A stretch of 64,000 nt of DNA from Bartonella birtlesii IBS 325. Lineage in GTDB: Bacteria > Pseudomonadota > Alphaproteobacteria > Rhizobiales > Rhizobiaceae. The first letter of the stretch is position 1; each line of letters begins with the position of its first letter. Below the pieces are notes generated by a model. The model saw only the letters and a list, made by a program, of their open reading frames with translations. It did not search any database and was not told the origin of the DNA. Positions 3,000 through 59,200 of the stretch are shown piece by piece. Location of the stretch: the NCBI RefSeq assembly GCF_000273375.1, contig NZ_CM001557.1, forward strand, positions 939,625 to 1,003,624, read 5' to 3'. The translations under genes and the position numbers were made by a program.

Positions 3000-3957
3000 T
3001 GGCAGTTTATACAGATATTCGACCAAGTGATTTGAAGATATTTTTGACACGTTATTCGGTAGGTTCACTTGTATCCTACCAAGGCATAGAAGAAGGGATA
3101 GAGAATTCTAATTTTATACTCCAGACAACAGAAGGAAAATTTATTCTCACACTTTATGAAAAACGTATTGCAAAAGATGATTTGCCTTTTTTTTCAGCCT
3201 TATGCAACATTTAAATCAACGTGGAATTCCTTGTCCTCAACTAGTAGCACAAAATGATGGAACAACAGTCGGTGAATTAGCAGGACGTCCTGCTGCTATT
3301 ATTACTTTTCTGGAAGGAATGTGGATTCGCCAGCCTAATATATATCATTGTGGTGAAGTGGGAACGAGTTTAGCGCAGTTGCATTTAGCAGGACAGGATT
3401 TTACGCTCTGTCGTAAAAATACTCTTTCTATTATGAATTGGAAGCTATTATGGAAACATTGCCAAACAAGCAAAGATGCATCATTAAGAGAATTTGAACA
3501 AAAAATTGATATGGAATTGACTTTTTTGCAGGAAAATTGGCCGTCAAATTTACCAACCGGCATTATTCATGCTGATTTATTTAATGATAATGTGTTTTTT
3601 TTGAACCATCATCTTTCTGGTATTATAGATTTCTATTTTGCTTGTAATGATTTTTTGGCTTATGATTTAGCGATCTGCTTGAATGCTTGGTGTTTTGAAC
3701 CGGACCATTCCTATAGCCTTACTAAAGCACGTAGACTTTTGGAAAATTATCAAAAAATAAGACCATTGCTTCTTGTAGAATTGGATGCGATGATTTTGTT
3801 GGCGCGTGGAGCATCTTTGCGTTTTTTACTTACGCGTCTTTATGATTGGTTTAATACACCATCAGAGAGCTTTGTCATTAAGAAAAACCCATGGGAATAT
3901 TGGCACAAGCTTCGTTTTTTCAGTAAGATAGGTTCACTGAATGAATTGGGTTTTTGA
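2999..3957 (+). pseudogene. thrB: Homoserine kinase, frameshifted in a T8 run
   Basis: ThrB phosphorylates L-homoserine, the step before threonine synthase (thrC is at 11065-12462). The frame opened by the ATG overlapping ispH encodes the N-terminal lobe (IENSNF, FILTLYEKR) and stops at 3214. The rest continues in the +2 frame from 3202, with the kinase signatures HADLFNDNVFF and GIIDFYFACND. The switch is at the T8 tract 3187-3194. Nine Ts would give 319 aa, the usual length, with DLPFF running into LMQHL as in relatives. There is no other lesion, so this is either an under-called homopolymer or a very recent inactivation. If real, endogenous threonine synthesis would be cut. Confidence 0.88.
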
Positions 3958-3962
3958 ATTGT

Positions 3963-4430
3963 ATGTCAGATCAACAGAAAGTCGTTGAAATTTATACAGA
4001 TGGTGCTTGTTCGGGTAATCCTGGAGTTGGCGGATGGGGAGCAATTCTACGCTGGAAAGGTTATGAACGTGAACTTTATGGTGGACAAGCGCATACCACT
4101 AATAATCAAATGGAACTAATGGCAGCAATTTGTGCATTGAAGGCGCTAAAACAATCCTGTTTTGTCGATCTTTATACGGATTCGGTTTATGTACGCAACG
4201 GTATCTCCACGTGGCTTGAAGGTTGGAAAAAAAATAATTGGCGTACTGTATCAAAAAATCCTGTAAAAAATATAGAGTTGTGGCAAGCTCTTGAAGAGGC
4301 TTGTTCTCATCATATTGTCAGATGGCATTGGGTGAAAGGACATGCAGGACATCCAGATAATGAGCGCGCAGATGCCCTGGCTCGGAAAGCAATTGTTGAA
4401 TTGCGTGAAAAAGGATCCTTTTCAAAATAA
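3963..4430 (+). CDS. rnhA: Ribonuclease HI
   Basis: It cleaves the RNA strand of RNA-DNA hybrids (R-loops, Okazaki primers). All catalytic residues are visible: Asp13 (YTDGACSGNPG), Glu51 (NNQMEL), Asp73 (YTDSVY), His127 (KGHAGH) and Asp137 (NERADALA). The length is 155 aa, the family norm. ATG 3963 is preferred over an in-frame TTG at 3954 that overlaps the thrB stop. The order ispH-thrB-rnhA is conserved in related rhizobia (from memory). Confidence 0.95.
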   Translation: MSDQQKVVEIYTDGACSGNPGVGGWGAILRWKGYERELYGGQAHTTNNQMELMAAICALKALKQSCFVDLYTDSVYVRNGISTWLEGWKKNNWRTVSKNPVKNIELWQALEEACSHHIVRWHWVKGHAGHPDNERADALARKAIVELREKGSFSK

Positions 4431-56285: not shown

Positions 56286-56573
56286 TTCTCGTTCCTTTAA
56301 TTATGGAATAATGTGTTATAAAAACTGTTTCAATATTCATAATAAAACCCCATAGGGTGCAATGAATCAAAACGGGAGTCCTCTGTCCAGTCTTTTTTTT
56401 AAAAAAAGTATTTTACTTTTATTGAATGTGGATGAAGCAAATAAGAGGAACTTTAAAAAGACTTCTAAACAGGTTTAAATGACTCATTTAGAGGATTGTT
56501 ATAGTTAAGTTATTCATTGATATTATTTTATTAAACGGTATCCTGACATAATGATTATAAATTATTTATCCAT

Positions 56574-59200
56574 TTAAGCGAGGAGACGGGAGATGATCTC
56601 AGTCACATCGCTTGATAATTGAGGAGCTACTGCAATTGTTTTTAATGCAGCTTTAAGTTTTTGTTGTCGAATAGGCTCTAATTGTCTCCAAGAACGCATT
56701 ATTGTGAGTAATCGCGAGGCAAGTTGTGGATTTTTCTTGTCAATTTCCAAAACAATTTGGCAAAGAAAGTGATAGGCTGCACCATCAACTCTATTAAAAC
56801 CCGTTAGGTTATTAGAAGCAAAGACACCAATTAGGGCTCGTACACGATTGGGATTATCTTGTGAAAAGAGCGGATGTTGCATGAGTTTTTGAATATGGTC
56901 AAGTGTTGATGCTCCTGCAACCATTGCTTGAATGGAAAACCATTTATCCATAACCAAAGGGTCATGCCGATACCGGTTTTCAAAATCATTTAAGGCATTT
57001 TGTGCCTGCTCACTTTTGTTAAAATGCCGCACTAAAATGGTTATACTGGCTATGCGGTCAGTCATGTTATCAGCTGTTATATATTGCGTGACAGCACGAT
57101 TTGGTTGCGCTTCAGCAATGGAAAGATAATCTAGGATAATATTCCGTAATGCTCGTTTTCCAGCTTGTGCAGTAGTTGGTGAATAGGGTTCATTAGTTTC
57201 CATTTGCATATAAACTTTTGTGAAAAGCCCTTGATGTGTATGCGCGAGTGAAGCTAAAAACTGATTACGCACAGAGTGGATACGATCTGGATCAACATTT
57301 TTACCGATTGTATGAGCAAGTTCTATTTCGCTAGGTAAATTTAAACAAAATGCTCGAAACTCTGGTTCAAGACTTTCATCTTTAAGGATGTTTTCAATTA
57401 ATTTTAGCAAAGAAGAAGGCATACTCTCTTTTACTTGTGTTTTATCGTTAATAGCTTGAATTAGAGCTTGCATCATTAAATGATTAAACGACTGCCAACG
57501 GTTGAGTTGATTGCTATCATTTTGTACAAGAAATATAAGCTCGTTTTCATTAAACGGAGTTTGTAAATTGATAGGTGCAGAGAAGTCTCTAAGCAGAGAT
57601 AAAACAGGTTTTTCACTCAGTCCCTTTAATGTGAACGTTTGGCTTTCTTTAGACAGAAGCATAACATCTGATTGAATATCCGCATCAGTCTCATAGGTAA
57701 GAGATTCTCCATTTTGTCCTAAGAGACCAAAAACGATAGGGATAAGCATAGGTTTTTTGTTTTTTGTTGCGGTGTTGCCGGAATATGTTGTTTTGCATGA
57801 ATTGTTAAAATACCATTGTTATAATGGTGGTCGATTTCCACATGAGGCGTTCCTGCTTGTTCATACCACAGCATGAATTGTGAAAAGTCTCTACCAGAGA
57901 CTTCAGCAAAACAGGTGACAAAATCTTCAATTGTGCAAGCTTGCCCATCATGACGTTGAAAATAGAGATCCATTCCTTTACGAAAAAGAGTAGGACCTAA
58001 AATAGTATGCATCATGCGAACAACTTCAGCGCCTTTCTCATAAACGGTTGTGGTGTAAAAGTTGTTGATTTCACTATATTGACGAGGCCGTACAGGATGA
58101 GCAAGTGGACCAGAATCTTCAGTAAATTGCATAGCTTTTAATGTTTTTATATTTTCAATTCTCTGTAGACTACGTACATTTTGATCTGAGGAAAATTCTT
58201 GATCTCGGTAAACTGTTAGTCCTTCTTTTAAACAAAGTTGAAACCAATCACGGCAAGTAATACGATTACCGGTCCAATTATGGAAATATTCATGAGCAAT
58301 GATACGTTCGACATTTCTATAATCATGATCGGTTGCTGTTTCAGGATCTGCAAGAACATATTTATCATTAAAGATGTTAAGCCCTTTATTTTCCATTGCA
58401 CCCATGTTAAAGTCCGAAACAGCAACAATATTGAAAACATCAAGGTCATATTCGCGTCCAAAGCATTGCTCATCCCAACGCATGGAGCGTTTGAGGGCAT
58501 CCATTGCATAGGTTGCACGTTTGGTTTTTCCTTTTTCCACATAGATACCAAGTTTGATACGTCGACCAGATACAGTAGTAAAATGGTCTTCTAACTTATC
58601 AAGATCACCGCCAACTAAAGCAAAGAGATAGGATGGTTTGGGATATGGATCTTCCCAAAGAGCAAAATGACGATTATTTTCAAGAGTTCCTGTTTCCACG
58701 AGATTACCATTGGAAAGTAAGATAGGGATTGTTTGAGAATCCGCTTCGATTTTGACCGTATAGGTAGAAAGAATATCTGGGCGGTCGTAAAAATAAGTAA
58801 TACGACGAAAACCTTCTGCTTCGCATTGTGTGCAATAAACACCATTTGAAAGATAAAGTCCCATAAGTTGGCGGTTGCTTTCAGGGTTTAGTTCCGTGAC
58901 CAATTGCAATGTAAAAGGAGTCGCTGGTGGAGTTGTAATTTCTAAACGTGAAGGCGTGCTTTTATAAGCGTTTGCAGACAATGCCTCACCATTAATAGCA
59001 ACAGAAATGAGTGTAAGATCATCACCAGAAAGCACAAGAGGCGTTCTTTCTTTCGTATTTTGACGCGCTTCAATCAATAATATTGCCGTAACAAGGGTTT
59101 TTGTTGGTTTCAAACAGAAGTGAAGTTGTGTTTTGGGGATAGCATAAGGGGTTGGTTGGTAGTCTTCCAGACGATAAATGGACATTGCTGATTGTTGCAT
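56574..59200 (-). pseudogene. pepN: Aminopeptidase N (M1), frameshifted in an A6 run
   Basis: The N-terminal part (59200 to about 57760) has the GAMEN exopeptidase motif (MGAMENKGLNIF) and the zinc site HEYFHNWTGNRIT with the distal Glu in LKEGLTVYRDQEF. It leaves frame after TPQQKTK. The C-terminal alpha-helical part continues in another frame (PMLIPIVFGLLG onward to 56574). Two A6 runs sit there (T6 at 57753-57758 and 57760-57765 on plus); one more A in either rejoins them as KKPMLIPIV, giving 875 aa, the normal size. CAGGAAAAAATT before ATG 59200 is a good ribosome binding site. No other damage. Confidence 0.9.

What the first reader, a model, noticed from the sequence alone, without database searches (positions are those of the whole stretch)
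3187..57765. Nine genes each lack exactly one base in an A/T run of 6-8
Seen: T8 3187-3194 (thrB), A7 5620-5626 minus (DsbD-like), A7 16896-16902 minus (HAD), T7 27007-27013 (DUF5330), A8 37912-37919 minus (PBP), T8 39238-39245 (feuQ), A6 53458-53463 (methyltransferase), A7 54203-54209 minus (PleC-like), A6 57753-57765 minus (pepN). One added base restores a frame divisible by three with normal length and motifs in all nine. True decay would mix insertions, deletions and stops. Most likely homopolymer under-calling (pyrosequencing-type). The biological alternative is transcriptional slippage at poly(A) tracts rescuing the proteins, as reported for some A+T-rich insect endosymbionts.
Basis: partly seen in the sequence, partly recalled or inferred. 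Interest (0 to 1): 0.75.

Follow-up and report, generated by a model that had tools for sequence, protein, structure and literature searches.

The report
Base-calling errors in a Bartonella genome
Several everyday genes in this Bartonella genome look broken by a single missing base in a run of A or T, but comparison with relatives shows the pattern of a sequencing machine miscounting long runs rather than of genes that really stopped working.

Summary
The window is from a 1.83 Mb single-contig Bartonella genome. Eight of the nine claimed breaks are confirmed: each is a net -1 at an A/T run, seen against all 5 or all 11 relatives aligned. The ninth (ogt-like) is misread: it carries two +1 differences close to its start. 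A tenth gene (CcmI-like) with two -1 breaks was missed. In 122 genes (window plus five 20-kb samples; 123.6 kb coding) 17 curated -1 breaks and no curated +1 remain, 10 in the window and 7 outside; 14 lie at runs now 7-8 long. Four relatives gave 2, 7, 8 (six in one gene) and 2 events in 93-99 kb each. Implied error rises from 0.4% at length 6 to 20% at 8 and 45% at 9. No interior stops were found (0 of 122 genes), and dN/dS of broken genes is close to that of the same genes between relatives. The only methionyl-tRNA synthetase gene found is also frame-broken, outside any run, which run slippage could not rescue. Best reading: sequencing indel errors, mostly homopolymer under-calling; platform unknown. 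Real mutation or slippage is not strictly excluded without reads.

The parts
2998..3957 (+). thrB (homoserine kinase), frame break at T8 3187-3194
   Evidence: net -1 against 5 of 5 relatives; NCBIfam homoserine kinase for a relative's intact protein
4806..5681 (-). DsbD N-terminal-domain protein, frame break at run 5620-5626
   Evidence: net -1 against 5 of 5 relatives; PF11412
16632..17324 (-). HAD-family hydrolase, frame break at run 16896-16902
   Evidence: net -1 against 5 of 5 relatives; PF13419
26965..27350 (+). DUF5330 protein, frame break at T7 27007-27013
   Evidence: net -1 against 5 of 5 relatives; PF17264
35794..37943 (-). PBP1A-family penicillin-binding protein, frame break at run 37912-37919
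   Evidence: net -1 against 11 of 11 relatives; TIGR02074
39199..40613 (+). feuQ-like sensor kinase, frame break at T8 39238-39245
   Evidence: net -1 against 11 of 11 relatives; histidine kinase families; gene name from the finding
40816..41548 (+).
   Evidence: net -1 at the first in 10 of 11 and at the second in 11 of 11 relatives; TPR families; start position varies among relatives
53443..53978 (+). ogt-like methyltransferase: net +1 at each of two A6 runs (53458-53463 and 53480-53485), close to the likely start; not a single missing base
   Evidence: 10 of 10 relatives spanning the site; TIGR00589
53985..56285 (-). PleC/DivJ-like sensor kinase, frame break at run 54203-54209
   Evidence: net -1 against 11 of 11 relatives; kinase families
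56574..59200 (-). pepN (aminopeptidase N), frame break in T6GT6 at 57753-57765
   Evidence: net -1 against 11 of 11 relatives; one match without stops in 58 of 60 other genus genomes; TIGR02414

Best explanation
The breaks are indel errors in the assembled sequence, not mutations in the cell. When the sequencing platform or consensus step met an A or T run of about eight or nine, it often reported one base too few; runs of seven or fewer were nearly always right. A smaller number of +1 differences also occur (ogt-like, metG). The genes are very probably intact in the organism. Shown here: position, sign, absence from the relatives aligned, run-length dependence, near-normal selection, and a frame-broken essential gene. 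Inferred: that the cause is base calling, and any platform.
For: (1) Each of the ten -1 window sites differs by exactly one base from all relatives aligned (nine sites) or from 10 of 11 (one site). (2) Outside the window: seven further curated -1 breaks in four of five 20-kb samples, and three more with one reference only. (3) Sign: 17 of -1, 0 curated +1 in 122 genes. (4) Run dependence: implied rates 1/284 at length 6, 2/115 at 7, 9/46 at 8, 5/11 at 9. Among coding A/T runs whose length agrees in all relatives compared, this genome differs in 0 of 934 of length 4-7, 2 of 6 of length 8 and 1 of 1 of length 9 (each one short); the four relatives differ in 0 of 27 of length 8 and 0 of 4 of length 9. 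(5) Pure orthologous coding runs with the longer at least 8: this genome shorter in 14, equal in 31, longer in 1 of 46 comparisons; between relatives 1 of 57 unequal (not independent). (6) Fewer runs of 9 or more: 7 in 432 kb against about 47 in 1,016 kb of four relatives (p = 0.007; the 47 is rebuilt from rounded rates, one G013 run of ten left out, overlaps not removed). (7) Interior stops in the frame of all references: 0 of 122 genes; broken-gene dN/dS 0.17-0.21 with this genome, 0.17-0.18 for the same genes between relatives. (8) The sole methionyl-tRNA synthetase found lies in two frames here, in one frame in 4 of 4 relatives; the change is a +1 outside a run. (9) mutS and mutL are open. 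(10) Published, passages seen: long-read deletion errors cluster at A/T homopolymers and fragment genes (PMC12007338, PMC8011154); Bartonella 454 genomes needed homopolymer correction (PMC3610622, PMC3483213).
Against: No reads were available. The broken PleC-like protein is listed on three public contigs, the longest 1,834,009 bases (100 more than this genome), and the own feuQ fragment likewise; if these were independent assemblies by other platforms the breaks would look real, but they may be copies of one assembly. Two of the 17 breaks (cdsA-like N terminus, a hypothetical protein's C terminus) sit at a run that is also short in sister genome G053, so they may be inherited or alternative-start differences. 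Non-coding runs of 8 or more were too few to test (1 shorter, 3 equal, 1 longer). G/C runs of length 4-6 showed no change (42 of 42). The ogt-like gene has two differences of the opposite sign. Relatives also show a few -1 differences at length 6 (G010 2 of 45, G073 1 of 47). A small dN/dS excess in this genome (up to 0.04) is not excluded.
Confidence: 0.9

Rival explanations
1. Real, very recent -1 mutations: a mutator or bottlenecked laboratory lineage has lost bases in long A/T runs by replication slippage, too recently for selection or further decay to show.
For: Breaks are absent from the relatives aligned, recent by dN/dS and run-length dependent, as replication slippage would be.
Against: mutS and mutL are open; 17 to 0 in favour of -1 while four relatives show 11 of -1 and 8 of +1; the only metG found is broken outside a run; the 7 breaks in the 100 kb outside the window extrapolate to roughly 130 in the genome, hard to survive.
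Confidence: 0.05
2. Real frameshifts rescued by transcriptional slippage at the A/T runs, as proposed for Buchnera and Blochmannia.
For: Transcript insertions predominate in A/T runs, which would favour tolerance of -1 frameshifts (PMC5574713, passages; the second step is my inference); purifying selection appears nearly intact.
Against: The window -1 runs are 6-8 long (5-8 outside); in a large share of 108 genomes avoidance becomes evident at nine, though the same paper suggests eight As can slip in some organisms (PMC1088944, passages); no relative aligned shares the ten window -1 breaks; a transcript survey of E. coli and Buchnera detected no restored frame (PMC5574713); the metG break is not in a run.
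Confidence: 0.03
3. Ordinary gene decay (pseudogenes) in a host-restricted bacterium.
For: Real decay occurs in the genus: one gene in G073 has six frame changes, and the best feuQ match in G075 carries 18 in-frame stops.
Against: Here nearly one class of change only, 0 of 122 genes with an interior stop, dN/dS close to that of the same genes between relatives, and housekeeping genes hit.
Confidence: 0.01

Closest known systems
Homopolymer indel errors of 454, Ion Torrent or nanopore assemblies (e.g. Kastor paper PMC12007338, Homopolish PMC8011154; Bartonella 454 genomes PMC3610622, PMC3483213; passages seen)
   Same: Single-base deletions in A/T runs that fragment otherwise conserved genes, many per genome, recognisable by comparison with relatives
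   Different: Platform of this assembly is unknown; one difference found is an insertion outside a run (metG); errors set in at longer runs than in the R9.4 nanopore example of the Kastor paper, where most follow runs of four to five
Poly(A)/poly(T) frameshifts in Blochmannia considered rescuable by slippage (PMC3017870, abstract and passages seen)
   Same: Frameshift confined to an A/T tract, gene otherwise normal, no accelerated evolution reported for the frameshifted genes tested there
   Different: There tracts reach 12 bases and some frameshifts are shared between species; here the runs are 6-8 and no aligned relative shares the window breaks

Membership tests
Homopolymer sequencing error | Length error rate rises steeply with run length | tested here: met
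   1/284, 2/115, 9/46, 5/11 at implied lengths 6-9
Homopolymer sequencing error | Private to the one assembly | tested here: met
   10 window -1 sites absent from 5-11 relatives each, one site 10 of 11; two sites outside the window are also short in G053
Homopolymer sequencing error | Blind to function, so essential genes and non-coding runs are hit too | tested here: inconclusive
   metG broken, though outside a run; non-coding long runs too few
Homopolymer sequencing error | Reads disagree with the consensus at the run | not testable with these tools
   no reads held
Slippage-rescued frameshift | Run long enough to slip (about nine or more A/T in many genomes) | tested here: not met
   window -1 runs 6-8; threshold from PMC1088944, which allows eight As in some organisms
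Slippage-rescued frameshift | Frameshift conserved across related lineages | tested here: not met
   no aligned relative shares the window -1 breaks; two outside the window may be shared with G053
Slippage-rescued frameshift | Heterogeneous transcripts and full-length protein | not testable with these tools
   no RNA or protein data
Pseudogene decay | Mixture of stops and indels of both signs | tested here: not met
   0 of 122 genes with an interior stop; signs 17 to 0, plus two +1 in ogt-like
Pseudogene decay | Raised dN/dS | tested here: not met
   0.17-0.21 against 0.17-0.18 for the same genes between relatives; a small excess is not excluded
Mismatch-repair mutator | mutS or mutL inactivated | tested here: not met
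   both open, no stops; subtle loss not excluded

The most novel reading that the evidence does not exclude
The short runs are real, and a culturable Bartonella carries of the order of a hundred recent -1 frameshifts in A/T runs of 7-8, tolerated because its RNA polymerase adds bases at unusually short runs.
Probability: 0.03. Interest if true: 0.8.

Novelty: not a real feature. Interest (0 to 1): 0.15.

Why it matters
It does not point to new biology, but it matters for users of the genome: of the order of 130 genes may be falsely read as broken (rough extrapolation from 7 breaks in the 100 kb sampled outside the window), including sensor kinases and biosynthetic genes whose apparent loss could be taken for host adaptation. 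If the runs were real, it would be a remarkable case of slippage-tolerant genetics outside insect symbionts.

Tried and rejected
Tried: a tblastn HSP chain to catalogue breaks and pairwise nucleotide alignment missed or misplaced some breaks; replaced by multi-relative MAFFT. Guessing collinearity with G013 to fetch references for the own-genome sample mostly failed: two of 19 stretches were well covered. One plasmid search gave nothing. Two paper searches built on a guess that the species is B. birtlesii gave nothing on its platform, one paper recalled by DOI was not held, and a taxonomy look-up of that name settled nothing; the guess was never tested and is not claimed. Non-coding run test: too few runs. 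A first alignment of metG used the wrong strand and was redone.

Rows dropped: clusters holding N, matches under 50% identity or 70% coverage, genes running off a piece and genes with fewer than two references were left out. Of 20 firm events (18 of -1, 2 of +1) I set aside three as probable upstream start extensions: +1 at window 37947 (not inspected by eye), +1 at L129:7381 (inspected) and -1 at L129:13694 (not inspected). In one search, with G013 as sole reference, three -1 breaks in L119 and L125 are mentioned but not counted, and two less clear genes (L119:6437-6946, L125:17521-18078) are left aside; the mirror-image control there listed 13 genes, several of them the same breaks seen from the other side. 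The two ogt +1 and the metG +1 are outside the 17. One search used the curated 17 for this genome but uncurated counts for relatives, which is conservative; its tests include the window, which was chosen for its breaks.

Full report
Organism. The window is G000:C1:939625-1003624 of a 1,833,909-base single-contig genome. The three best of 80 named loci for its pepN are Bartonella. G053 is taken to be B. florencae because a contig of 287,815 bases appears both as G053:C3 and as the longest contig of the B. florencae hit.

Observation. All nine runs are at the stated coordinates. I collected syntenic DNA of relatives, took their open reading frames, aligned each gene cluster to the window with MAFFT and followed the frame of the window against each relative (47 clusters with at least two relatives). 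Eight claimed genes show a net -1 at the claimed run against all 5 or all 11 relatives aligned, and the length over each site is one less than in each of these relatives. For the first four genes the five relatives do not include the sister genome G053. The ogt-like gene is different: 10 of 10 relatives spanning the site show the window one base longer at each of two A6 runs, 15 bases or more after the likely start. A tenth gene, TPR/CcmI-like, has two -1 breaks 29 bases apart.

Beyond the window. I sampled 19 stretches of 20 kb of the own genome and for five of them fetched four relatives each. In window plus these five, 122 genes (123.6 kb coding) gave 20 firm events: 18 of -1, 2 of +1. After removing three probable start extensions (see Tried and rejected), 17 of -1 and none of +1 remain: 10 in the window and 7 outside (L112 two, L122 three, L124 one, L129 one, L121 none). 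Five are at runs now 8 long, nine at 7, two at 6, one at 5. The same procedure gave G013 2, G053 7, G073 8 and G010 2 events in 93-99 kb coding each, 11 of -1 and 8 of +1 in all; six of G073's lie in one gene that looks truly decayed. Genes interrupted outside the window include RseP-like, ComEC-like, nuclease-like, VirB10-like, cdsA-like and a hypothetical one, and, with one reference only, truB-like, mazG-like and a helix-turn-helix gene.

Run dependence. Counting each break as a run one base short, the implied rates are 1/284 at length 6, 2/115 at 7, 9/46 at 8 and 5/11 at 9 (run counts). Where all relatives compared agree on a pure coding A/T run, this genome differs in 0 of 934 runs of length 4-7, 2 of 6 of length 8 and 1 of 1 of length 9; the four relatives differ in 0 of 27 and 0 of 4 at lengths 8 and 9 (the runs of 9 are probably one and the same locus). 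Results against a clean picture: at length 6 G010 differs in 2 of 45 and G073 in 1 of 47. Pairwise comparison of long coding runs makes this genome the outlier (14 shorter, 31 equal, 1 longer; other pairs 1 of 57 unequal; comparisons not independent).

Selection. Over the broken genes dN/dS against G053, G013, G073 and G010 is 0.17, 0.21, 0.19, 0.19; between relatives for the same genes 0.168, 0.166, 0.175; for intact genes 0.13-0.15. The broken set evolves faster everywhere; a small excess in this genome remains possible. No interior stop codon is found in the frame of all references (0 of 122 genes).

Essential gene. PF00133 searched in five genomes finds methionyl-tRNA synthetase in one frame in four relatives but in two frames here; the relative's protein is metG by NCBIfam. 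The break is a net +1 in a non-repetitive stretch. No second match of that kind is among the eight matches in this genome. metG is essential in bacteria (general knowledge). A run-slippage mechanism cannot act there, so this indel is very probably a sequence error; if so, the assembly carries indel errors. mutS and mutL are open, which argues against a mismatch-repair mutator.

Slippage literature. In 108 genomes the length at which selection against A/T runs is evident is nine in a large share (PMC1088944, passages). In E. coli and Buchnera transcripts, insertions prevail in A/T runs, but no restored frame was detected (PMC5574713, passages and one section). [quoted passage not shown] A transcript insertion bias would favour tolerance of -1 frameshifts, which is the best point for that rival, but the runs here are shorter, the window breaks are not shared by relatives, and the implied total is large.

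Remaining doubts. The own broken PleC-like protein is carried by three public contigs, one of 1,834,009 bases; I could not tell whether they are independent. The cdsA-like N-terminal break and a hypothetical protein's C-terminal break are at runs also short in G053 (for the latter only G073 served as outgroup there); with G053 itself showing homopolymer indels of both signs, coincidence or alternative starts are possible. The platform is unknown. The extrapolation to about 130 breaks rests on 100 kb.

Verdict. Observation largely right, with one gene misread and one missed; the artefact interpretation is supported. Confidence 0.9.

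Noticed in passing
56574-59200: pepN is 97.7% identical to G013 at the DNA level while aligned genes average about 87%, suggesting recent recombination between Bartonella species.
   Followed up: partly
G013 loci L092-L095, joined piece 52186-54299: G013 carries its own frame changes in the feuP-like (+1) and feuQ-like (-1) genes, neither at a long run; feuQ-like is also heavily decayed in G075, in pieces with many stops in G005, and without a close match in G049.
   Followed up: no
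L206:728-3658: The G073 gene, probably the counterpart of the 974-aa gene at window 48568-51492, has six frame changes of both signs: an example of what real decay looks like.
   Followed up: no
L122:84-989: cdsA-like N terminus is one base short in both this genome and G053 at the same T run; shared true frameshift, alternative start, or two coincident errors.
   Followed up: partly
G053 pieces L190, L200, L238, L241, L245: The G053 draft also shows seven firm indels (3 of -1, 4 of +1), five of them near A/T runs of 7-8, suggesting quality problems there too.
   Followed up: no
window (whole contig): Own proteins P0001 and P0121 are listed on three public contigs, the longest 1,834,009 bases, 100 more than the genome held here.
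   Followed up: no
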